Assembly: GCA_021845835.1 (NCBI GenBank)
Contig: JAJZVE010000001.1
Span: 1 to 32,123, forward strand
Origin: Pseudomonadota bacterium
GTDB taxonomy: Bacteria; Pseudomonadota; Alphaproteobacteria; Acetobacterales; Acetobacteraceae
Reading direction: 5' to 3'
DNA length: 32,123 nucleotides
Position numbers and translations under genes: made by a program
Shown: positions 1 through 9,608 of the stretch, piece after piece
Numbering within the stretch: the first letter of the stretch is position 1
Layout: each line of letters starts with the position of its first letter
Notes under the pieces: model-generated
The model's input: the letters and a program-made list of their open reading frames with translations, nothing else
Told to the model about the DNA's origin: nothing
Databases searched by the model: none

Positions 1-16
1 CACGTCAGCGGTACAA

Positions 17-102
17 CGTTACCCCCGCGAAAGCGGGAGGCCAGGGGGCCCCCCGCCACGCAGGCGGCGCACGCCTGGATGCCCGCCCGCGCGGGCATGA
101 CG
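17..102. repeat. Inverted pair of REP-like palindromic units
   Basis: Two 29-base units face each other. Unit A occupies 17-45 (read on the minus strand) and unit B occupies 74-102 (plus strand). Both start CCTGG and end A-CG, and 20 of 29 positions match. Each unit contains its own hairpin: a 5-bp stem with a GAAA loop at 24-37, and an 8-bp stem with a 4-base loop at 79-98. The pattern resembles the dispersed intergenic palindromes common in GC-rich alphaproteobacteria. It ends 13 bases before the hyfE start. It could act in mRNA processing or as an attenuator between an upstream gene and hyfE, or be only a mobile-repeat remnant. Confidence 0.6.
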
Positions 103-115
103 GGGACAGGCACCC

Positions 116-778
116 ATGAGCAGCTTCTCCTTCGACGTCGCCAACACGCTGGCGGGATTCCTGGTGCTGGCGAGCTTACTGATGATCTATCAGGTGCGGC
201 TGCCGGCGCTGCTGAACATGCTCGGGCTGCACGCCTTCATCCTGTCGCTCGCGGTCGCCTGGCAGGCGTATGCCCAGGACGCGCCGGAACTCTACGTCAC
301 CGCGCTTGTCACGCTGGTGTTCAAGGCGGTGGCGATCCCGCTGGCGCTGCAACGCATCGTCGTCCGCCTGGGCATCCATCGCGAGATCGAGGCGGTGACC
401 GGCATCGGCCTGACCATGCTGGCCGGCATCGGGCTGGTGGCGCTGTCGCTGGAAGTGATGCTGCCGGTGACGGCACATGCCGATCCGCTGACGCGCGAGG
501 ACATCGCGCTGGCGCTGTCGGTGGTGCTGCTCGGCCTCCTGATGATGGTGACGCGGCGCAATGCGGTGAGTCAGGTGGCGGCGTTCCTGTCGCTGGAGAA
601 CGGCGTCGATCTCGCCGCCGCGGCGGCGCAGGGCATGCCGCTGGTGGTGGAGATCAGCATCGCCTTCTCAGTGCTGGTGGCGTTCCTGGTGATCGGCGTG
701 TTCCTGTTCCGCATCCGCGAGCGCTTCGACACGGTCGATCTGCGCGCGCTCGACCAGTTCCGGGGGGAACGGCGATGA
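116..778 (+). CDS. hyfE: Hydrogenase-4-type membrane subunit E (HyfE)
   Basis: A 220-residue, strongly hydrophobic protein with about six to seven membrane segments and few charged loops. It matches HyfE, a small membrane-arm subunit related to NuoK and MrpC. The role in the family is to help form the proton/ion-translocating arm of group 4 hydrogenases and related complexes. The ATG at 116 follows a GGGGACAGG purine-rich stretch. The stop overlaps the next start (ATGA at 775-778), so translation is probably coupled to hyfF. The family assignment is firm. The cargo of the complex depends on the hyfG-like subunit, which is not a normal hydrogenase. Genes for the other membrane subunits (HyfB and HyfC types) would be expected just left of the window. 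Confidence 0.85.
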   Translation: MSSFSFDVANTLAGFLVLASLLMIYQVRLPALLNMLGLHAFILSLAVAWQAYAQDAPELYVTALVTLVFKAVAIPLALQRIVVRLGIHREIEAVTGIGLTMLAGIGLVALSLEVMLPVTAHADPLTREDIALALSVVLLGLLMMVTRRNAVSQVAAFLSLENGVDLAAAAAQGMPLVVEISIAFSVLVAFLVIGVFLFRIRERFDTVDLRALDQFRGERR

Positions 779-2208
779 CCGCCCTCGTCGGCATCCTCGG
801 CGCGCCGCTGGTCGGCGCGGCGATTCTGGCGCTGCTGTCCGGTTACCGGCTGTCGGCGCGCATCAACATCGCGGCGAGCTTTGTCGCCTTCGCCTGCGCG
901 CTGCTGCTGTTCGGGGTGCGGCCGGCGGGCGGCGACCTGCTGCTGGTGGACGACCTCAACGTCGTCTTCATCGTGCTTTCCACCTTCGTTGGTTTCACCA
1001 CCAGTATCTTCAGCGCCAGCTACATCGACCACGAGCTGCACACCGGCCGGCTGACGCCCGCCTATCTGCGGTTTTACCACGCGATGTTCCAGGTGATGAT
1101 GTTCGGCATGAACCTGGCGCTCGTCTCCAACAATATCGGCCTGATGTGGGTCGCGGTGGAGCTGGCGACGCTGTCCACGGTGATGATGGTCGGTATCTAT
1201 CGTACGCACGAGGCGATCGAGGCGGCGTGGAAGTATTTCATCCTCGGCAGCGTCGGCATCGCTCTCGCCCTGTTCGGCACCATCCTCGTCTATCTGGCGG
1301 CGCGGCCGGTGGTCGGCGGCGGCCTGCCGGGCATGGCGTGGACGGTGCTGCTGAAGCACGCCGCCGGCTTCGATCCTGCCCTGCTCGACGTGGCGTTCGT
1401 GTTCCTGCTGCTGGGCTACGGCACCAAGGTCGGGCTGGCGCCGATGCACGCCTGGCTGCCGGACGCGCATGCCGAAGGGCCGACGCCGATCTCGGCCGTG
1501 CTGTCGGGTTTGCTGCTGAATGTGGCGCTGTATGCGCTGCTGCGCTTCAAGGTGCTGCTGGCCGCCTGTCCGGGCGGCATCGCGGCCGGGCCGCTGATGA
1601 TCGGCCTCGGTCTGGTTTCGCTGCTGTTCGCGAGCGTGATGCTGTATCGCCGCCGCGACATCAAGCGCATGTTCGCCTATTCCTCGATCGAGCACATGGG
1701 CATCATCGTGTTCGCCTTCGGCATGGCCGGGCCGCTCGGCAACTTCGCCGGGCTGCTGCAGATGGTGATGCACAGCCTGACCAAGTCGGCGATCTTCTTC
1801 TCGGTCGGCCATGTGGCGCAGGTGAAGGGCACGCAGCGCATCGTCGAGATGGGCGGGCTGACCGAAAGCCATCCGCTGCTTGGCTGGAGTCTGGTCGCCA
1901 GCGTTGCCGCCATCACCGGCCTGCCGCCGTTCGGCGTGTTCACCAGCGAGTTCCTGGTGATCAGCTCCACCTTCGCGCGCGAACCGCTGCTCGCGGTGCT
2001 GCTGGTGCTGGGACTGCTGCTCGCGCTGGGGGCGCTGTTGCTGCGCGTCTCCTCGGTCGCGTTCGGGCCGGTGCGCGGGCCGGCGGGGCCGGTGCAGGCG
2101 TCGTTCGTGCCGATGTTCCTGCATCTCGCACTGGTGCTGATCGCCGGCGTCTATCTGCCGGCGCCGCTGGTGGCGTGGTTTCAGCACGTCGCGGTGTTGC
2201 TCGGATGA
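775..2208 (+). CDS. hyfF: Hydrogenase-4-type antiporter-like subunit F (HyfF)
   Basis: A 477-residue polytopic membrane protein of the NuoL/NuoM/NuoN and Mrp antiporter family (Proton_antipo_M). Features seen are VAVELATL with Glu129 in the TM5 position, GTKVGLAPMHAWLPDAH with Lys218, and KRMFAYSSIEHMG further on. These Glu/Lys residues and the broken-helix TKxGxxPxHxWLPDAH segment are the known ion-channel elements of the family. The start is the ATG at 775, which overlaps the hyfE stop; a longer in-frame ORF back to base 79 only runs through hyfE in the wrong frame. The end overlaps the next gene. It is slightly shorter than E. coli HyfF (about 526 residues). Function: proton or sodium translocation coupled to the soluble arm. 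Confidence 0.87.
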   Translation: MTALVGILGAPLVGAAILALLSGYRLSARINIAASFVAFACALLLFGVRPAGGDLLLVDDLNVVFIVLSTFVGFTTSIFSASYIDHELHTGRLTPAYLRFYHAMFQVMMFGMNLALVSNNIGLMWVAVELATLSTVMMVGIYRTHEAIEAAWKYFILGSVGIALALFGTILVYLAARPVVGGGLPGMAWTVLLKHAAGFDPALLDVAFVFLLLGYGTKVGLAPMHAWLPDAHAEGPTPISAVLSGLLLNVALYALLRFKVLLAACPGGIAAGPLMIGLGLVSLLFASVMLYRRRDIKRMFAYSSIEHMGIIVFAFGMAGPLGNFAGLLQMVMHSLTKSAIFFSVGHVAQVKGTQRIVEMGGLTESHPLLGWSLVASVAAITGLPPFGVFTSEFLVISSTFAREPLLAVLLVLGLLLALGALLLRVSSVAFGPVRGPAGPVQASFVPMFLHLALVLIAGVYLPAPLVAWFQHVAVLLG

Positions 2209-3581
2209 TGCGCTGGGAGAACGCCGAGGCGCGGCTTGCCGACGGCAGCGCGACGCTGCTCGGCCTGTGGGGCGAGCCGGGGGTGGTGCATCTGGCGCTG
2301 TGGCAGGACGATGCGGTGCAGCACCTCGCCTTCACCTGTGCGGATGGCCGCTATCCGGCGATCGGCCGGCTGCACCCGGCGGCGATCCGGCTGGAGCGCG
2401 CGGCGCGCGACCTGCACGGCCTGGTCCCGGTCGGCCTGCCGGACGAGCGGCCCTGGCTCGATCACGGCGCGGACCCGACCGCCTATCCGTTCCTGCCGGT
2501 CGAGGGCGAGAACCTGCACCAGATCCCGGTCGGGCCGGTACATGCCGGCATCATCGAGCCGGGGCATTTCCGCTTCACCTGCGATGGCGAAACGGTGGTG
2601 CGGCTGGAGGAGCGGCTCGGCTACGTGCATCGCGGCGTCGAGGCGCTGATGCAGGGCGCCGACCTGGACACGGCGGCCCGGTTCGCCGGGCGCATCAGCG
2701 GTGACAGCACGGTGGCCTACGCCATCGCGTTCGCGCAGGCGGCGGAGCAGGCGACCGGAACCACGCCGCCGCCGCGGGCGGTATGGCTGCGCGCGCTGAT
2801 GGCGGAGCTGGAGCGGCTCGCCAACCATCTCGGCGATGTCGGCGCCGTCTGCAACGACGCCGCGTTCGCGCTGATGCAGGCGCACTGCGCGGTGCTGCGT
2901 GAGCGGACCTTGCGCGCCGCGGCCGCGTGTTTCGGGCACCGGCTGATGATGGACAGGGTGGTACCCGGCGGCGTGGCGCGCGACCTCGCCGCGGCGGACA
3001 CGGCGGTGCTGCGCGCATTGGTGGCGGATGTGCGCAAGCATTTCCCGCCGTTGGTGCGGCTGTATGACCTGACCGCCTCGCTGCAGGACCGCACGGTGGG
3101 AACGGGCGTGCTGCGTCAGGAGCTGGCGCGGCAGTTCGGTGCCGGCGGCTATGTCGGCCGCGCCTCCGGCCGCGACTTCGATGCCCGCCGCACGCCCGGC
3201 TACGCGCCGTACGACGTGCTCGCCTTCACGGTGCCGACACTGGATGCGGGCGACGTGAACGCGCGTGTCTGGGTGCGGATCGAGGAAATCACGCAGAGCC
3301 TGGGCCTGATCGAGCAGGTGCTGGACCGGCTGCCGGAGGGACCGGCGCGGGCGGAGATCGCGGACGGCGCGGGCGAGGGGCTGGCGCTGGTGGAAGGGTT
3401 CCGCGGCGACGTGCTGCTCTGGCTGCGGGTGAACGACGGGCGCGTCGCGCGCGTGCATGCGCGCGATCCGTCCTGGTTCCAGTGGCCGCTGCTGGAAGCC
3501 GCCATCGACGGCAACATCGTCGCCGACTTCCCGCTCTGCAACAAGTCGTTCAACTGCTCCTACGCGGGGCACGATCTCTAG
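2205..3581 (+). CDS. hyfG: HyfG/NuoCD-like large subunit without NiFe ligands (Ehr-type)
   Basis: A 458-residue fusion of a short NuoC-like part (about 1-100) and a NuoD/hydrogenase large-subunit-like part (about 105-458). It carries the family motif PVGPVHAGIIEPGHFRF (108-124), then ELERLANHLGD (201-211). In true group 4 hydrogenases an RxCGxC motif follows; here the region reads AGRISGDSTVAYA (161-173) with no cysteine. The C-terminal DPCxxC motif is replaced by DFPLCNKSFNCSYAGHDL, whose cysteines (445 and 451) are spaced CX5C. A NiFe centre is therefore unlikely, which is the state known for Ehr complexes. The start is ATG 2205 overlapping the hyfF stop; ATG 2208 is equally possible. The symbol denotes the family only. 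The substrate is unknown; quinone or another redox partner is plausible. Confidence 0.8.
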   Translation: MMRWENAEARLADGSATLLGLWGEPGVVHLALWQDDAVQHLAFTCADGRYPAIGRLHPAAIRLERAARDLHGLVPVGLPDERPWLDHGADPTAYPFLPVEGENLHQIPVGPVHAGIIEPGHFRFTCDGETVVRLEERLGYVHRGVEALMQGADLDTAARFAGRISGDSTVAYAIAFAQAAEQATGTTPPPRAVWLRALMAELERLANHLGDVGAVCNDAAFALMQAHCAVLRERTLRAAAACFGHRLMMDRVVPGGVARDLAAADTAVLRALVADVRKHFPPLVRLYDLTASLQDRTVGTGVLRQELARQFGAGGYVGRASGRDFDARRTPGYAPYDVLAFTVPTLDAGDVNARVWVRIEEITQSLGLIEQVLDRLPEGPARAEIADGAGEGLALVEGFRGDVLLWLRVNDGRVARVHARDPSWFQWPLLEAAIDGNIVADFPLCNKSFNCSYAGHDL

Positions 3582-3589
3582 GCGCACGC

Positions 3590-4126
3590 ATGCGAAGGAC
3601 GCTCCTGCAAGGGCTGCGGCGGCCGTTGACCGAGGCGCCGCCGCGCATCGACGATCCGGCGGTGGTGACGCTCGCGCACGAGCTGGATGCGGCGGCGCAA
3701 CGGCGGCTGGGCCGCAGCCTTTCGATCCGCGAGGTCGATGCCGGGTCCTGCAACGGCTGCGAACTGGAGATCCACGCGCTCAACAACGCCTTCTACGACC
3801 TGGAGCGGTTCGGCCTGCGCTTCGTCGCCTCGCCGCGCCATGCCGACGTGCTGCTGGTGACCGGGCCGGTGACACGCAACATGCGCATGGCGCTGGAGCG
3901 CACCTATGCCGCGACGCCGGCACCGAAATGGGTGGTCGCGGTCGGCGCGTGCGCGCGCGACGGCGGGATGTTCGCGGCCAGTCCGCAGTGCCTTGGCGGG
4001 GTCGGCGCGGTGCTGCCGGTCGATGTCGTCATCGCCGGCTGCCCACCGACCCCGCTCGATCTGCTGCGCGGGCTGTTGACGCTGCTGCGCCCGACGCCGC
4101 CGGTCAGCGACCGAAGCGCGCCGTGA
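3590..4126 (+). CDS. hyfI: NuoB/HyfI-like [4Fe-4S] small subunit
   Basis: A 178-residue protein of the NuoB/hydrogenase small-subunit family. It has AGSCNGCELEIHALNN (51-66, Cys54 and Cys57), VGACARDGG (Cys121) and IAGCPPTP (Cys151), which together supply the four ligands for one proximal [4Fe-4S] cluster. In the family this subunit sits at the junction of the soluble and membrane arms and passes electrons to the large-subunit site. Its cluster ligands are intact although the partner large subunit lacks the NiFe cysteines. That suggests electron transfer is retained but chemistry at the large subunit differs. The ATG at 3590 lies 8 bases after the hyfG-like stop. The 3' end overlaps the convergent PEBP gene by 23 bases. 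Confidence 0.85.
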   Translation: MRRTLLQGLRRPLTEAPPRIDDPAVVTLAHELDAAAQRRLGRSLSIREVDAGSCNGCELEIHALNNAFYDLERFGLRFVASPRHADVLLVTGPVTRNMRMALERTYAATPAPKWVVAVGACARDGGMFAASPQCLGGVGAVLPVDVVIAGCPPTPLDLLRGLLTLLRPTPPVSDRSAP

Positions 4127-4649
4127 AGCTCGCCTTGGCCAGCGTCGCGTAGTGCGTGACGAAGCCGACCACAGCGGCGGTCGGGTTCGGCGGCACCTCC
4201 AGCTTGTCGGTCTTCACCGCGTAGAGGGTGAAGATATAACGGTGCGGTTTGTCGCCCTTGGGCGGGCACGGGCCGCCGTAGCCTTCCGTGCCGTAGTCGG
4301 TGCGGCCCTGCATCGCGCCCGCCGGCTCCTTGCCCGGCGTGCCGGCGCCTTGTGGCAGGCTGGTGACGGAGGCGGGGATGTTGTACATCACCCAGTGCCA
4401 GAACCCGCTGCCGGTGGGCGCGTCCGGATCATAGACAGTCAGCACATAGCTTTTGGTGCCGGCGGGCGCGCCGCTCCAGGACAGCGCCGGGGAGATATTT
4501 TCGCCGGTGCAGCCGAAGCTGTTGAACGCGAACTTGTCGCCGATCTTGCCGCCGGACCTGATGTCCGGGCTGGTCAGTTTGAACTGCTCCGCCGCGGCGG
4601 GCGCCGCCGCAAGGCCGAACAGCAGGAACGAGCAGACGAGTGAACGCAT
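4104..4649 (-). CDS. Secreted YbhB/YbcL-type PEBP family protein
   Basis: A 181-residue protein with a clear Sec signal peptide: MRS, a hydrophobic core, then AAPAAAEQ (cleavage near residue 20). The mature part is a bacterial phosphatidylethanolamine-binding protein. It carries the hallmark YDPDAPTGSGFWHWVMYNIP (72-91) and a later GYGGPCPPKGDKPHRYIF segment, both ligand-pocket motifs. The family is related to eukaryotic RKIP, but the ligand of bacterial members is unsettled. The start at 4649 is chosen because GGGAGGGAA sits 6-14 bases upstream; a much longer open frame to the right is antisense to the binding-protein gene. It is divergent from the ABC operon (129-base gap) and convergent with hyfI. 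No functional link to either neighbour is evident. Confidence 0.88.
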   Translation of the reverse strand: MRSLVCSFLLFGLAAAPAAAEQFKLTSPDIRSGGKIGDKFAFNSFGCTGENISPALSWSGAPAGTKSYVLTVYDPDAPTGSGFWHWVMYNIPASVTSLPQGAGTPGKEPAGAMQGRTDYGTEGYGGPCPPKGDKPHRYIFTLYAVKTDKLEVPPNPTAAVVGFVTHYATLAKASFTARFGR

Positions 4650-4778
4650 CCGATTCCCTCCCTGTGGGTCAGCGTTGCCCGGTCGGATCATAGCCGACGC
4701 GGCGTGGATTTCCAGGTGCGCGATGTGCCGCCCGCGGCTAGGCTTCCGCCGCACGCCAAACAAACGGGGAGTGAGCAA

Positions 4779-5996
4779 ATGAAGTGGCGGAACGGCATGG
4801 TACTGGCGGCCGCGGTGACGGTCGCACTCGGGTGGACCGCGGCGCGCGCGGAGACGGTGCGGGTGACCGCCGCCTACTACAGCGACAAGACCGGCCCGTA
4901 TTTCGAGCAGATGGCGAAGGACTTCCACGCCAGGAACCCCGGCATCGACATCAAGGTCGAGGTAGTGAACTGGGACAACCTGCTGCAGAAGCTGCAGACG
5001 GACGTCTCGGGCGGCACCAATGCCGACATTTCGATCATCGGCACGCGCTGGCTGCTTGATTTCGTCAAGGACGACCAGGCGGAGCCGCTCGACGGCTACA
5101 TGGACCAGGCGTTCAAGGACCGCTTCATCGGCGCTTTCCTCGCCCCCGGCCAGATCGGCGGCAAGACCTATGGCCTGCCGATCGCGGCTTCGGCGAGGGC
5201 CATGTTCTACAACAAGGACCTGCTGGCGCAGGCAGGCATCACCGCGCCGCCGGCGACCTGGGACGAACTGGCGGCCGACGCCGCCAGGCTGAAGGCCAAG
5301 GGCATCGCCGCATTCGGGCTGCAGGGCAAGGCGATCGAGACGGACGTGTACTGGTACTACGCGCTGTGGACCTATGGCGGCGACGTGGTGAAGGACGGCC
5401 GCGCCACGTTCGCCAGCGACGCCGGCGTGAAGTCGCTGACGATGTACAAGTCGCTGATCGACCGGGGTCTGACCGAGGACGGGCCGACCAACTACACACG
5501 CGAGGACCTGCAGAACCTGTTCAAGCAGGGGCGCGTGGCGATGATGATCACGGCGCCGTTCCTGATCAATCAGATCGCGTCGGAGGCGCCGAAACTGAAC
5601 TACGGCATTGCCCCAGTGCCGAAGGAGACGCGCAACGCCACCTATGCGGTGACCGATTCGGTCGTTCTGTTCAAGAACAGCAAGGTGAAACCGGCGGCGT
5701 GGAAGTTCCTGGATTTCCTGTTCACCAGGCAGCCCCGCGTCGATTTCACCAAAGGCGAGGGCTTCCTGCCGACCACGAAGGCGGAGGCGGAAGATCCGTA
5801 TTTCACCACCAACGAGCGGCTGCAGACCTTCGTGAACCTGCTGCCGAACGCGCATTTCGCGCCGACCGTGACCGGGTGGGAGGATACCGCGAAGGCGGTG
5901 TCGGACGCAGTGCAGTCGGTCTATGTCGGCAAGGCGCAACCGGCGGCGGCGCTGCAGCAGGCGGCGGAGACAGCGAACCAGGCGCTCGGCAAGTAG
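4779..5996 (+). CDS. ABC sugar transporter, periplasmic solute-binding protein
   Basis: A 405-residue family 1 extracellular solute-binding protein (SBP_bac_1, UgpB/MalE type). The signal peptide covers residues 1-24 (MKWR start, hydrophobic core, AARA then ETVRV). The mature protein shows the typical pattern: PYFEQMAKDFHARNPGI, DISIIGTRWL, YGLPIAASARAMFYNKDLL, a central YWYYALWTYGGDVV and a later WKFLDFLFT. The start at 4779 has GGGGAGTGAG just upstream; the in-frame region before it is not protein-like. The gene leads a three-gene operon with two permeases. Family members bind mono- or oligosaccharides or glycerol-phosphates, so an aldose is likely, but the exact ligand cannot be read from sequence. 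Confidence 0.9.
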   Translation: MKWRNGMVLAAAVTVALGWTAARAETVRVTAAYYSDKTGPYFEQMAKDFHARNPGIDIKVEVVNWDNLLQKLQTDVSGGTNADISIIGTRWLLDFVKDDQAEPLDGYMDQAFKDRFIGAFLAPGQIGGKTYGLPIAASARAMFYNKDLLAQAGITAPPATWDELAADAARLKAKGIAAFGLQGKAIETDVYWYYALWTYGGDVVKDGRATFASDAGVKSLTMYKSLIDRGLTEDGPTNYTREDLQNLFKQGRVAMMITAPFLINQIASEAPKLNYGIAPVPKETRNATYAVTDSVVLFKNSKVKPAAWKFLDFLFTRQPRVDFTKGEGFLPTTKAEAEDPYFTTNERLQTFVNLLPNAHFAPTVTGWEDTAKAVSDAVQSVYVGKAQPAAALQQAAETANQALGK

Positions 5997-6009
5997 CCGC
6001 GGCGGCCGG

Positions 6010-6909
6010 GTGACGCGGACGGACAGCGACGGGGGCCGCGCGATTCGTCGCGCGGCCTCGCCGTGGCTGCTGGTGCTGCCCAGCCTCGTGCTCGCCGTCG
6101 CGGTGATCGGCTATCCGCTCTATGAGATCGTCCGGCTGTCCGTGTCCGACGTGTCGCGTTTCGGCCAGGTGCGCGGCTTCGTCGGCGGGGCGAATTTCGC
6201 GCGCGTGTTCGCCGATCCGGTGTTCCTGGGCGCGCTGCTGCGCACGCTCGAATGGACCGCGGCGGTGGTCGGCGGCACGGTGCTGATCTCGACCGGGGTG
6301 GCGCTGATCCTGCACCAGGATTTCTGGGGCCGCGGCGTCGCGCGCACGCTGGTCATGCTGCCCTGGTCGATCTCGCTGTCGATGGCGGCGATCGTGTGGC
6401 TGTGGTCGTTCGACGGCGACCACGGCATGGTGAATGCGACGCTGCACCAGCTCGGCCTGCTGCACAACAACGTGCAATGGATGGCGCGCGCCGAAACCGC
6501 GCTCCCGGCCGAGATCGGCGTCGGCATCCTGGTATCGATCCCGTTCACGACCACGATCCTGCTCGGCGGGCTCGCGTCGGTGCCGGGCGACATCTACGAG
6601 GCGGCGAGCATCGACGGCGCGTCGCGCGTGCAGGCGTTCCGGTACCTGACGCTGCCGCTGCTGCGCGGCTTCATCAACATCGCGATCGTGCTCAACGTCA
6701 TCTACGTGTTCAATTCCTTCCCGATCATCTGGGTGATGACGCAGGGCGGGCCGGACAATACCACGCACATCCTGGTGACGTACCTCTACGAACTCGCCTT
6801 CCGGCTCGGCCGCCCCGGTCCGGCGGCGGCGGTGTCGCTGGTGATGCTGGCGATCGTGTTCGCGTTCACGATGCTCTATATGCGGATGCAAAAGGAACAG
6901 TCGGCGTGA
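6010..6909 (+). CDS. ABC sugar transporter, permease 1 (MalF/UgpA type)
   Basis: A 299-residue inner-membrane permease with six predicted helices (BPD_transp_1). The cytoplasmic EAA loop reads EAASIDGASRVQAFRYLTLP, the site that docks on the ATPase. A C-terminal NTTHILVTYLYELAF segment is typical of MalF/UgpA partners. A GTG at 6010, 13 bases after the binding-protein stop, is the best start: an upstream in-frame ATG at 5923 would add an Arg-rich tail that merely overlaps the previous gene. The ribosome-binding site is weak (GGCGGCCGG), so translation may depend on coupling. The gene ends in a GTGA overlap with the second permease. Confidence 0.87.
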   Translation: MTRTDSDGGRAIRRAASPWLLVLPSLVLAVAVIGYPLYEIVRLSVSDVSRFGQVRGFVGGANFARVFADPVFLGALLRTLEWTAAVVGGTVLISTGVALILHQDFWGRGVARTLVMLPWSISLSMAAIVWLWSFDGDHGMVNATLHQLGLLHNNVQWMARAETALPAEIGVGILVSIPFTTTILLGGLASVPGDIYEAASIDGASRVQAFRYLTLPLLRGFINIAIVLNVIYVFNSFPIIWVMTQGGPDNTTHILVTYLYELAFRLGRPGPAAAVSLVMLAIVFAFTMLYMRMQKEQSA

Positions 6910-7757
6910 CCGCAGCGCGGATGCTGCGGCGCTCCATGCTGTGCTGGCTCGCGCTGGCGCCGCTGCTGGTGCTGGTGATCTTCCCGTTCGCGGTGATGCT
7001 GTCCACGGCGCTGAAGCCGATCGACGAGGTGCTGGCCTGGCCGCCGCGCTGGCTGCCCGACCATATCGCCTGGCACAATTTCTCCGACATGTGGATCGCC
7101 GCGGATTTCGGCACGGCGCTGCTGAACAGCATCCTGATCAGCGTGCTCGCGACCCTGCTCGCGATCGCGGTGGCGGTGCCGGCAGCCTATGCGATGGCGC
7201 GGCTGGAGCTGCGCGGGCGCAGCCTGTATCGCCAATTCCTGCTGGTGACGCAGATGCTCTCGCCGGTGCTGCTGGTGCTGGGCCTGTTCCGCATGGCCGC
7301 GGCGATCCCGTTCGGCGACGGCACGCTGGTCGATACGCGCACCGGCGTCGTGCTGATCTACGGCGCGTTCAACATTGCCTTCGCGGTGTGGATGCTCGCG
7401 TCCTACTTCGCCACCATTCCGCGCGACCTGGAGGAAGCGGCGTGGCTGGACGGCTGCACGCGCGCGGGCGCGGTGCTGCGCATCTTTTTGCCGCTCGCGG
7501 TGCCGGCGATCTCGGTCACGGCCATTGTCACCTTCGTCTCGGCCTGGAACGAGTTCACCGTGGCGCTGACGATGCTGCGCGATCCGGCGAAGCTGACGCT
7601 GACGCTGCGCGTGGTCAACCTGGTCGCCGGCCGCTATTCGGTGCAGTGGAACCAGGTGATGCTGGCGACCCTGCTGGCGACGCTGCCGGTCGCGGTGATC
7701 TTCGCCGTGCTGCAGCGCTTCCTGGTGCGCGGCCTGACGCTGGGGGCCGTGAAGTAG
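6906..7757 (+). CDS. ABC sugar transporter, permease 2 (MalG/UgpE type)
   Basis: A 283-residue MalG/UgpE-type permease with six predicted helices. Its EAA loop is EEAAWLDGCTRAGAVLRIFLP and is followed by FVSAWNEFTVALTML, both characteristic of carbohydrate ABC permeases of the CUT1 group. The start is a GTG at 6906 overlapping the previous stop (GTGA); an ATG at 6921 is an alternative. The operon ends here with no nucleotide-binding subunit, since the next gene is convergent with a 15-base gap. CUT1 systems often share a MalK/MsmK-type ATPase encoded elsewhere, which is the likely explanation. Confidence 0.87.
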   Translation: MTAARMLRRSMLCWLALAPLLVLVIFPFAVMLSTALKPIDEVLAWPPRWLPDHIAWHNFSDMWIAADFGTALLNSILISVLATLLAIAVAVPAAYAMARLELRGRSLYRQFLLVTQMLSPVLLVLGLFRMAAAIPFGDGTLVDTRTGVVLIYGAFNIAFAVWMLASYFATIPRDLEEAAWLDGCTRAGAVLRIFLPLAVPAISVTAIVTFVSAWNEFTVALTMLRDPAKLTLTLRVVNLVAGRYSVQWNQVMLATLLATLPVAVIFAVLQRFLVRGLTLGAVK

Positions 7758-7772
7758 GGGCGCCTGGCCGGC

Positions 7773-9608
7773 TTATGACGGGGATGCGCCGGGCATGACG
7801 ATGCGGAACAGTTCGAAGCGTTCGCCGCGGTGAAGCAGGACGAGTCGGTCCGGCGCCGGGCTTGTCGGTTCCGGGCGGTCGATGACGTAGACATAATCGT
7901 AGGTGTGCACCCAATCCGACCAGTAGATGCGGCCGCTCGGGTCGTAGAGGGGCTCCTGGTCCAGTGGAAAGCCGCGCGGCGGTGCCAGCAGCGCGGCGAG
8001 CGGGATCGGCTGGTCGTCGAAGCCACCGGCGCTCGCGCGATAGGGTGGCTTGACCACCAGGATCTGTTGCAGCGGATGCGAGTACAGCAGCGAGACCATG
8101 CAGGATCGCTCGATGACGGCGAGCAGCGGCAGTTCCTGGATGGCCCCGCTCAGCGCATCCGGCGCGGTCACGGACCCGTCGGCAACCAGGATCCTGCTGC
8201 CGGGCGGAATCAGCCTGAGCGACGCCTCGAAGTCGCTGTCGATTCGTCCGTAGTGCTGGAAGGCCGCGCCGACCGATGCCGTCCGGAACAACGCAAGCAG
8301 ACCCAGCACGACGAGGAATCCGGTTCGCGTGACCGCGGTGCGCAGGTCCCAGTGCAAGGCCCCGATCACCACCAGCAGTACGGCGAGCGGCAGGCGAACC
8401 GCGGCGCCCCAGCCGCCGGCGATCTGGTTCGGAACAGCGAGATAGACAAGCCCCGCGACCGCAAGCAGCACCCAGCCGAACGAATGAAGATGGAGGATGT
8501 TGCGGCCGATCGCCACAACGAGGGCCGCGCTGATCAGCAGCATGGCGATCAGATCAAATCGCGGAGAATATGTTTCCAGCAGGAAGCGGATGCCGTCGAT
8601 GCGTGCATGGATGCCGCCCCAGACGAAGGGCGTGGCATATGCACCTTGCCTGGCCGGCCCGAGCAGAAGCAACAGCAGCGCGATCAGGAAGGGCGCGATC
8701 AGCACCACCGCGTCGGCCGCGGGCGTTCGGTGCGCGTGTGGCTGCGACCACCAGTACCAAAGCTCGAAGCTGCCGATTGCAACGCCATAAAATCCGAGCG
8801 CTGCGAAGTGGCAAAAGAACAGGATTGCCACGCAGCAAGCCGAAACGGCGGCCCGCAGCAGCGGATGGGCCGGGCGTAGCGCGATCCACGCCGCGAGCGC
8901 GAACATGGCTAGCCCGATACCGAACTGATAGTTCAGTATGCCCATCTTGCTCACACCGTTGTACACGAACAGCACAGCCACCAGCGGTCCGAAGGAGAGC
9001 TGGCGGTACAGCGCCCAATGGATCGCATGCGGTCCGCTCAGCAACAGCAGCGAGCAGACGACGAAGAACACCTTGCCGGCGAGGAAGATGCTGGTTGCGG
9101 CGGCGAGCCACGGCAGCACCAACTCCATGCCGAGATTCGGGATGACATGCCACTGGATGCCGTAGAACTGCGCCAGCAGGGGATCGCGGCCACGCAGCAC
9201 CATCACATGGATGCGGGCAAGATAGTTCGGATAATCGTCGTCCGGAGGCAATCGCGTGACCAGCACCGGCAGCAGCACGAGCAGGAACAGAAGGCCGGCC
9301 ATTGGCAGCAGGATGGTCAGCCGCGGCGGCGCGGCCGGATGCGGCATCGGGCCGCGCAGGACAGGCGGTTCCGGCGCCGTGCGAAGCAGCAAGGCGGCAA
9401 CGACGGCCAGCGGCAGGCCGACACCCGCCGCAACCCACCCGGCATGGCGCGCTTCAGCGAACTGGGCGGCGACGTACACGCCAACGATCACGGCTAGCGC
9501 GCAAGCGGACCGGAATGCCAGCAGGCGGATGCACCGCCACACCTCCCCCTCGCGCCGCACGCTCAGGGACGGGCGATCGTCCGCGCCGTTGTCGTTCGCT
9601 CCCGCCAC
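7773..9608 (-). CDS. Large polytopic membrane protein, GT-C-like layout, function unknown
   Basis: A 611-residue protein with about eleven to twelve hydrophobic segments between residues 28 and 430, and a soluble C-terminal domain of about 150 residues. After the third hydrophobic stretch comes an acidic loop, RLPPDDDYPNYLARIH (119-134). GT-C glycosyltransferases that use polyprenyl-phosphate sugars place their catalytic acid in the first extracytoplasmic loop, so this layout suggests a GT-C relative. I do not recognise a specific family. The tail includes HTYDYVYVIDRPEP. The start is a GTG at 9608 with GGGAATGAG just upstream; no in-frame ATG fits better. It faces the sugar dehydrogenase across a 150-base gap that holds a dyad. 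Confidence 0.72.
   Translation of the reverse strand: MAGANDNGADDRPSLSVRREGEVWRCIRLLAFRSACALAVIVGVYVAAQFAEARHAGWVAAGVGLPLAVVAALLLRTAPEPPVLRGPMPHPAAPPRLTILLPMAGLLFLLVLLPVLVTRLPPDDDYPNYLARIHVMVLRGRDPLLAQFYGIQWHVIPNLGMELVLPWLAAATSIFLAGKVFFVVCSLLLLSGPHAIHWALYRQLSFGPLVAVLFVYNGVSKMGILNYQFGIGLAMFALAAWIALRPAHPLLRAAVSACCVAILFFCHFAALGFYGVAIGSFELWYWWSQPHAHRTPAADAVVLIAPFLIALLLLLLGPARQGAYATPFVWGGIHARIDGIRFLLETYSPRFDLIAMLLISAALVVAIGRNILHLHSFGWVLLAVAGLVYLAVPNQIAGGWGAAVRLPLAVLLVVIGALHWDLRTAVTRTGFLVVLGLLALFRTASVGAAFQHYGRIDSDFEASLRLIPPGSRILVADGSVTAPDALSGAIQELPLLAVIERSCMVSLLYSHPLQQILVVKPPYRASAGGFDDQPIPLAALLAPPRGFPLDQEPLYDPSGRIYWSDWVHTYDYVYVIDRPEPTSPAPDRLVLLHRGERFELFRIVMPGASPS

What the first reader, a model, noticed from the sequence alone, without database searches (positions are those of the whole stretch)
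2205..3581. Hydrogenase-like large subunit that has lost both NiFe cysteine pairs
Seen: AGRISGDSTVAYA (161-173) stands where RxCGxC belongs, and the C-terminus has CX5C (LCNKSFNC, Cys445/Cys451) in place of CxxC. The small subunit keeps its four Fe-S cysteines and the membrane subunit keeps its Glu129 and Lys218. Known: Ehr complexes have hydrogenase-4-like subunits without NiFe ligands. Inference: this is a membrane redox pump of unknown substrate, and the conserved C-terminal cysteines may form a different site.
Basis: partly seen in the sequence, partly recalled or inferred. Interest (0 to 1): 0.7.

Follow-up and report, generated by a model that had tools for sequence, protein, structure and literature searches.

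The report
Hydrogenase relative without nickel-iron site
The gene belongs to a widespread membrane complex (Hyq/Ehr) that descends from hydrogenases but has lost the nickel-iron centre; the loss is already in print, yet the complex has been reported to consume and make hydrogen, a contradiction that can be tested directly.

Summary
The 458-aa protein has Ser165, Ser168, Ser452 and Gly455 where HycE has its four NiFe cysteines, and it ends at the residue matching HycE Arg537. Cys445 and Cys451 are not a widened CxxC; they lie seven residues and one residue before the first C-terminal ligand position.

It is not new in kind. It is the HyqG subunit of a Hyq/Ehr complex, in one tree subclade with HyqG of Azorhizobium caulinodans. 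A 2012 paper (PMC3357923) already says that HyqG lacks both CxxC motifs and keeps three other cysteines. New here: two of those three (Cys445, Cys451) are confined to one clade, being absent from 240 beta-proteobacterial and actinobacterial relatives, so they are not the common site. Common to 441 relatives is a polar set (Asp167, Asp218, Asn446-Lys447-Ser448-Phe449, Tyr453, Asp457). The complex is widespread in genomes without hypE or nifD.

Best reading: an ion-translocating complex with one [4Fe-4S] cluster and an unidentified substrate, not a NiFe hydrogenase. Unresolved: three genetic papers attribute H2 uptake or evolution to this complex. Either that attribution is wrong or a NiFe-free hydrogenase exists. 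No structure model could be made.

The parts
2205..3581 (+). hyqG/hyfG-like large subunit, 458 aa: NuoC-like N-terminal part fused to a NuoD/HycE-like part without NiFe ligands
2685..2723 (+). codons 161-173, AGRISGDSTVAYA, in place of the N-terminal NiFe motif (S165, S168 on HycE C241, C244)
3537..3578 (+). codons 445-458, CNKSFNCSYAGHDL, the end of the protein (S452, G455 on HycE C531, C534; L458 on R537)
3590..4126 (+). hyqI/hyfI-like small subunit, 178 aa, with CxxC...C...C for one [4Fe-4S] cluster
775..2208 (+). hyqF/hyfF-like antiporter-type subunit, 477 aa, Glu129 and Lys218 kept; overlaps hyqG by 4 bases
116..778 (+). hyqE/hyfE-like membrane subunit, 220 aa; overlaps hyqF by 4 bases
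1..115 (.). stretch before hyqE with two GC-rich palindromes and no likeness to the end of HyfC by eye; in 67 complete operons of relatives hyqC ends close before hyqE (aligned ends 3 to 90 nt apart in all but one, median 7)
   Evidence: hyqB and hyqC are not in this window

Best explanation
This is the large subunit of a Hyq-type Ehr complex: a six-subunit core version of complex I (HyqB, C, E, F in the membrane, HyqG and HyqI in the cytosol) that descends from a group 4 [NiFe] hydrogenase and lost the metal site. Shown: the four NiFe ligands are absent, there is no tail to be cleaved, the cluster cysteines of HyqI and the key charged residues of HyqF are kept, no double-4Fe-4S ferredoxin gene was found near the operon in 80 relatives' loci, and the complex is common in genomes without hypE. 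Inferred: the [4Fe-4S] cluster of HyqI is the only redox centre; a small two-electron substrate or a docking partner reacts with it in the former NiFe cavity, which is now lined by conserved polar residues (Arg163, Asp167, Asn217-Asp218, Asn446-Lys447, Asn450, Tyr453, Asp457); this is passed through HyqC to the antiporter-like subunits and moves H+ or Na+. The substrate is not identified. Recycling of nitrogenase H2 cannot be its general task.
For: Alignment with HycE, HyfG and FHL controls. 0 of 441 proteins of three clades have the four ligands and 1 has two of them. Asp167, Asp218, Asn446, Lys447, Ser448, Phe449, Tyr453, Asp457 are 441 of 441. The protein stops at the position of HycE Arg537 in 441 of 441, while the 4 FHL proteins run on for 32 residues. 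In 67 of 80 loci all six genes are found, in 67 of 67 in the order B-C-E-F-G-I. Double 4Fe-4S motif: 0 of 80 loci, 0 of 8 further ones and not in the window, against 4 of 4 FHL loci. hypE over the cut-off in 5 of 12, 46 of 113 and 26 of 107 carrier genomes. In the tree the 51 NiFe-less group 4 proteins lie together with four-Cys L149 beside them.
Against: No structure could be modelled, so the cavity is inferred from alignment only. The NKSF part of the motif is also in four-Cys L149, so it predates the loss and is not proof of a new site; 7 of 20 Acetobacteraceae copies read have no NKS motif and no NiFe ligands. Redox activity and ion transport of this family are not shown anywhere that I saw. 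The Azorhizobium papers tie H2 uptake and evolution to this complex. The fork that sets L149 apart has only middling support (86/88) and the tool warned of long branches.
Confidence: 0.6

Rival explanations
1. A true hydrogenase without NiFe: HyqG turns H2 over at another site (another metal, or beside the [4Fe-4S] cluster) and exchanges electrons with quinone, as proposed for Azorhizobium.
For: Nodule H2 evolution 0.32 (hupSL), 0.36 (hyqRI) and 27.0 (double) umol per g per h. Cultures under 1 uM O2: 61,000 (hupSL), 14,000 (double), 56,600 (nifK hupSL) and 1,100 (nifA) pmol per 1e9 cells per min. H2 recycling is said to survive deletion of the 20-gene hup/hyp operon, and to occur in Rhodocista centenaria without hup/hyp (both without shown data). 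In the genome identified as A. caulinodans, PF00374 matches only the hup region (four matches at 661-674 kb) and HyqG, and PF02906 (FeFe) nothing. The alpha-type clade alone keeps C228, C445 and C451 beside C216.
Against: One laboratory, whole cells only (a cell-free assay was 'not at hand'); the deletion also removes the regulator hyqR; 14,000 units remain in the double mutant. No known kind of H2-activating site is present. C445, C451 and C228 are missing in 240 of 240 beta and actinobacterial relatives. 70 of 113 and 103 of 107 carriers lack nifD, though other H2 sources are possible.
Confidence: 0.12
2. A quinone oxidoreductase like complex I: electrons from an unknown donor pass the [4Fe-4S] cluster to quinone at the complex I site.
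For: Same fold family and N2-like cluster. The quinone-site Asp139 of T. thermophilus Nqo4 has its match in Asp218, 441 of 441. The 2012 authors argue for H2:quinone oxidoreduction.
Against: The residues at the two quinone-headgroup ligands of Nqo4 (His38, Tyr87; their role is recalled) are Ile117 and Gly166. HyqI has CxxC where E. coli NuoB has the tandem Cys63-Cys64. No donor module and no ferredoxin subunit.
Confidence: 0.2
3. A non-redox or mainly structural large subunit: the membrane arm works as a cation/proton antiporter and HyqG is a scaffold.
For: No NiFe, no quinone ligands, one cluster only; in some Competibacteraceae loci potassium- and SulP-type transporter genes lie next to the operon (names given by me from the sequence).
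Against: All four cluster cysteines and a polar cavity set are kept; a scaffold would not need them.
Confidence: 0.13
4. Decayed or mis-sequenced hydrogenase gene.
For: Loss of four catalytic ligands in one protein.
Against: 441 relatives keep the same replacements and an intact frame of the same operon.
Confidence: 0.01

Closest known systems
Hyq 'endo-hydrogenase' of Azorhizobium caulinodans (hyqRBCEFGI; PMC2650096, PMC2930871, PMC3357923)
   Same: Same genes and order in relatives; HyqG of the identified genome has 504 aa and Cys-258, -491, -497 as printed and equals our C216, C445, C451 in the alignment; same subclade in the tree, 95/95.
   Different: hyqR, hyqB and hyqC are not in the window. 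NifA control was shown for Azorhizobium; a simple sigma54/NifA scan of 70 upstream regions found no clear general excess of both signals together (1 of 70 against 0.7% in controls), but it also missed the Azorhizobium promoter.
[quoted passage not shown] 2013, not held, recalled; passages in PMC6349859, PMC10284858, PMC7304191, PMC10432482)
   Same: Group 4-like large subunit without the CxxC motifs, small subunit with cluster cysteines, antiporter-like subunits.
   Different: Some Ehr are proposed to work with formate dehydrogenase (PMC6349859); no such gene was looked for by profile here, and no double-4Fe-4S subunit lies near these operons.
E. coli hydrogenase 3/4 (HycE, HyfG) and FHL of Azospirillum and Rhodovastum
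   Same: About 32% identity, same fold family and membrane subunits.
   Different: These have the four Cys, a 32-residue tail, HyfA/HyfD/HyfH-type subunits and maturation genes.
L149/L154, an Acetobacteraceae-family genome's four-Cys relative
   Same: 39-42% identity, B-C-E-F-G-I order, NKSF motif, ends at the CTDR position.
   Different: Keeps RICGVC and CYSC; has a weak HycF-like match before the small subunit. Its record has a base N and frame breaks next to the large subunit and was left as it is.

Membership tests
Group 4 [NiFe] hydrogenase | four Cys ligands (RxCGxC and CxxC) | tested here: not met
   S165, S168, S452, G455; 0 of 441 relatives have four
Group 4 [NiFe] hydrogenase | C-terminal tail removed during maturation (present in HycE-type enzymes) | tested here: not met
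   0 residues past L458 in 441 of 441; 32 in 4 of 4 FHL; four-Cys L149 also has none, so the feature is not universal
Group 4 [NiFe] hydrogenase | hyp maturation genes in the genome | tested here: not met
   hypE absent in 67 of 113 and 81 of 107 carrier genomes; the window's own genome is not held
Respiratory complex I | quinone ligands His38 and Tyr87 of Nqo4 | tested here: not met
   I117 and G166; D218 matches D139
Respiratory complex I | tandem Cys for cluster N2 | tested here: not met
   CxxC at 54-57 of HyqI against Cys63-Cys64 of NuoB
Ehr | hydrogenase-like large subunit without NiFe ligands | tested here: met
Ehr | small subunit with [4Fe-4S] cysteines | tested here: met
Ehr | antiporter-like and NuoH-like membrane subunits | tested here: inconclusive
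   antiporter-like HyqF is in the window; the NuoH-like HyqC was found in 71 of 80 relatives' loci but lies outside the window
Hyq | operon hyqRBCEFGI | tested here: inconclusive
   E-F-G-I seen; R, B, C would lie left of the window
Hyq | HyqG groups with A. caulinodans HyqG | tested here: met
   13-row clade, 95/95
Hyq | H2 uptake and evolution | not testable with these tools
   claimed

The most novel reading that the evidence does not exclude
The alpha-type Hyq complex is a hydrogenase of a new kind: it oxidises and evolves H2 without NiFe, without Hyp maturation and without any of the four ligands, at a site in the old NiFe cavity that may use Cys216, Cys228, Cys445 and Cys451 (a set found only in this clade) or the [4Fe-4S] cluster. 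It would be spread through aerobic bacteria that are not counted as H2 users.
Probability: 0.1. Interest if true: 0.96.

Novelty: new member of a known kind. Interest (0 to 1): 0.5.

Why it matters
The function of Ehr complexes is open: the passages I read call it unknown. This family is the one Ehr for which I found deletion phenotypes, and they point to H2, which the sequence cannot explain by any known site. The distribution found here (few carriers with nifD in Acetobacteraceae, most without hypE) shows that NiFe chemistry and nitrogenase H2 recycling cannot be the general answer, and it makes clean tests possible in carriers that have neither.

Tried and rejected
A widened CxxC at Cys445/Cys451: rejected by the register. 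Cys445/Cys451 as the common catalytic site: rejected by the beta and actinobacterial sets. General NifA/sigma54 control: 70 upstream regions scanned; sigma54 score of 9 or more in 23 of 70 against 19.8% of control windows, 10 or more in 4 of 70 against 2.3%, NifA-box-like match in 13 of 70 against 5.0%, both in 1 of 70 against 0.7%; the scan also missed the Azorhizobium promoter, so it is weak. Restriction to N2 fixers, as stated in PMC2930871: not borne out, although nifD is more frequent among carriers in the family of G004 (43 of 113 against 25 of 183, odds ratio 3.9; kinship not corrected) and not clearly so in the family of G002 (4 of 107 against 2 of 93). A common functional neighbour: none found in the 20 loci printed and two annotated plasmids; Competibacteraceae loci share transporter genes. 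Structure prediction: tool switched off. Viral contigs: no relative.

Limits: the 441 proteins are the best hits of three searches plus 80 loci, so close kin are over-represented (438 distinct); carrier lists for searches were copied by hand; draft genomes can miss genes, but of 22 carriers whose match lies beyond 1 Mb on its contig 8 have neither nifD nor hypE; 2 of the 113 carriers are fragments; a cut of E 1e-100 was used and genomes with weaker matches were counted as non-carriers.

Full report
1. The sequence. The gene at 2205-3581 is intact and lies in a tight group hyqE-hyqF-hyqG-hyqI with 4-base overlaps between E/F and F/G. Pfam sees Complex1_49kDa and a weak NiFeSe_Hases match in the large subunit, Proton_antipo_M in HyqF and Oxidored_q6 in the small subunit. 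The best solved relative is HycE of the E. coli formate hydrogenlyase, 7z0s.

2. The NiFe site. With HycE, HyfG and two FHL proteins whose loci carry hycI, hycH and hyp genes, the query has S165, S168, S452 and G455 at HycE C241, C244, C531 and C534. The C-terminal stretch aligns without a gap, and a four-Cys relative that also has the NKSF motif (L149) supports that register. L458 aligns with HycE R537, which is recalled as the HycI cleavage residue; none of 441 relatives has residues beyond it, while the four FHL proteins have 32.

3. What is conserved instead. Three sets were compared: 201 alpha-type, 120 beta-type and 120 actinobacterial proteins. D167, D218, N446, K447, S448, F449, Y453 and D457 are 441 of 441; R163 and N217 are 440; G455 is 440; N450 is 438; position 168 is Ser or Thr in 439; S452 is 422; S165 is 412 (Cys in 24). 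The three cysteines named in 2012 do not hold up: C445 199/201, 0/120, 0/120; C451 197/201, 0/120, 0/120; C216 198/201, 0/120, 120/120, and Cys in 4 of 4 FHL, so C216 is older. C228 (Azorhizobium Cys-270) is 195/201, 0/120, 0/120. Against over-reading the motif: L149 has NKSF together with all four ligands, and among 20 copies read from unnamed Acetobacteraceae-family genomes 12 keep SGD and NKS, 1 is L149 and 7 have neither NKS nor NiFe ligands.

4. Relation to complex I. At Nqo4 His38, Tyr87 and Asp139 the family has Ile117, Gly166 and Asp218. The small subunit has CxxC rather than the tandem pair of NuoB. HyqF keeps E129 and K218.

5. Gene neighbourhood. In 67 of 80 loci all six genes were found, always in the order B-C-E-F-G-I; the others are mostly cut by contig ends. 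Annotated plasmids of Methylovirgula and Rhizobium johnstonii 3841 show an HTH gene before hyfB and no hydrogenase accessory genes in the stretch. A double 4Fe-4S pattern was found in 4 of 4 FHL loci and 0 of 80 plus 0 of 8 Hyq/Ehr loci. In the window hyqE is preceded by a 115-base stretch with two palindromes, not by the end of hyqC.

6. Identity with Hyq. A primer printed in PMC2650096 matched one of 296 genomes; the locus holds all six genes, and its HyqG has 504 residues with Cys at 258, 491 and 497, exactly as in PMC3357923. It carries GRVSGDSTVAYA and ADFPLCNKSFNCSYAGHDL. In a tree of 59 proteins the window protein and this HyqG are in one 13-row clade (95/95), and the 51 NiFe-less group 4 proteins lie together, with L149 next to them (forks 88/99 and 86/88, not among the strongest; long-branch warnings).

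7. What was published. PMC2650096 (abstract, results, discussion read): operon deletion slows diazotrophic growth by about a fifth, no effect with ammonium, NifA-dependent expression, NiFe inferred by homology. PMC2930871 (abstract and results read): only the double hup/hyq mutant evolves H2 in nodules. PMC3357923 (abstract and parts 1 to 4 of 5 read): in vivo H2 uptake and evolution, absence of CxxC motifs and doubt about a NiFe site, no cell-free assay. My searches for later work on Hyq listed only these three papers that use the name; the library holds open-licence papers only. Passages of five papers that mention Ehr were read; three of them state the missing cysteines or motifs and call the function unknown or untested.

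8. Distribution. In 296 genomes of the family of G004, 113 carry Hyq (111 full, 2 fragments): 43 have nifD, 46 have hypE, 61 have neither; among the 183 others 25 have nifD and 31 hypE. In 200 genomes of the family of G002, 107 carry it at E 1e-100 or better: 4 have nifD, 26 hypE, 80 neither; among the other 93, 2 and 7. hypE is thus more frequent among carriers in both families (odds ratios 3.4 and 3.9), which I do not explain; but most carriers lack it. A NiFe enzyme without HypE is not expected (established knowledge), so these complexes do not hold a normal NiFe centre.

9. Judgement. That this is not a NiFe hydrogenase is close to certain (about 0.97). That it is a redox-linked ion pump with an unknown substrate is inference from anatomy (0.6). 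The H2 data from one laboratory remain unexplained: in the genome identified as A. caulinodans no hydrogenase other than the hup region, HyqG and no FeFe type was found. I keep the NiFe-free hydrogenase as a live but unlikely reading (about 0.1).

Noticed in passing
L149 / L154 (G419:C107): Group 4 large subunit with all four NiFe Cys, the NKSF motif and no C-terminal tail; it branches beside the NiFe-less clade and looks like the state before the loss.
   Followed up: partly
L139, L141, L142, L143, L145, L146: Divergent Acetobacteraceae-family copies without NiFe ligands in which the SGD or NKS motifs are also eroded; in G001, G002 and G368 they sit in a genome with a standard copy.
   Followed up: partly
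L124, L126, L088: Another NiFe-less clade with other C-terminal ends (...ASFGLSNAECDR, ...ASFWLTVAGFAR, ...ASFGLTIAGCDR) and other gene orders; L124 carries two such large subunits.
   Followed up: partly
window 1-115: Two GC-rich palindromes before hyqE where relatives have hyqC close by; possibly a dispersed repeat that split the operon.
   Followed up: partly
L081, about 2621-9183: In Methylovirgula plasmid pHY1 a second F-type ATP synthase operon lies just upstream of hyfB, on the other strand.
   Followed up: no
L039, L066 and other Competibacteraceae loci: Genes that look like TrkH-type and SulP-type transporters flank the operon (my reading of the sequences; not profile-tested).
   Followed up: no
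public annotations: Many members are named NADH-quinone oxidoreductase subunit C, HypE or nickel-dependent hydrogenase large subunit, names that the sequence does not bear out.
   Followed up: no
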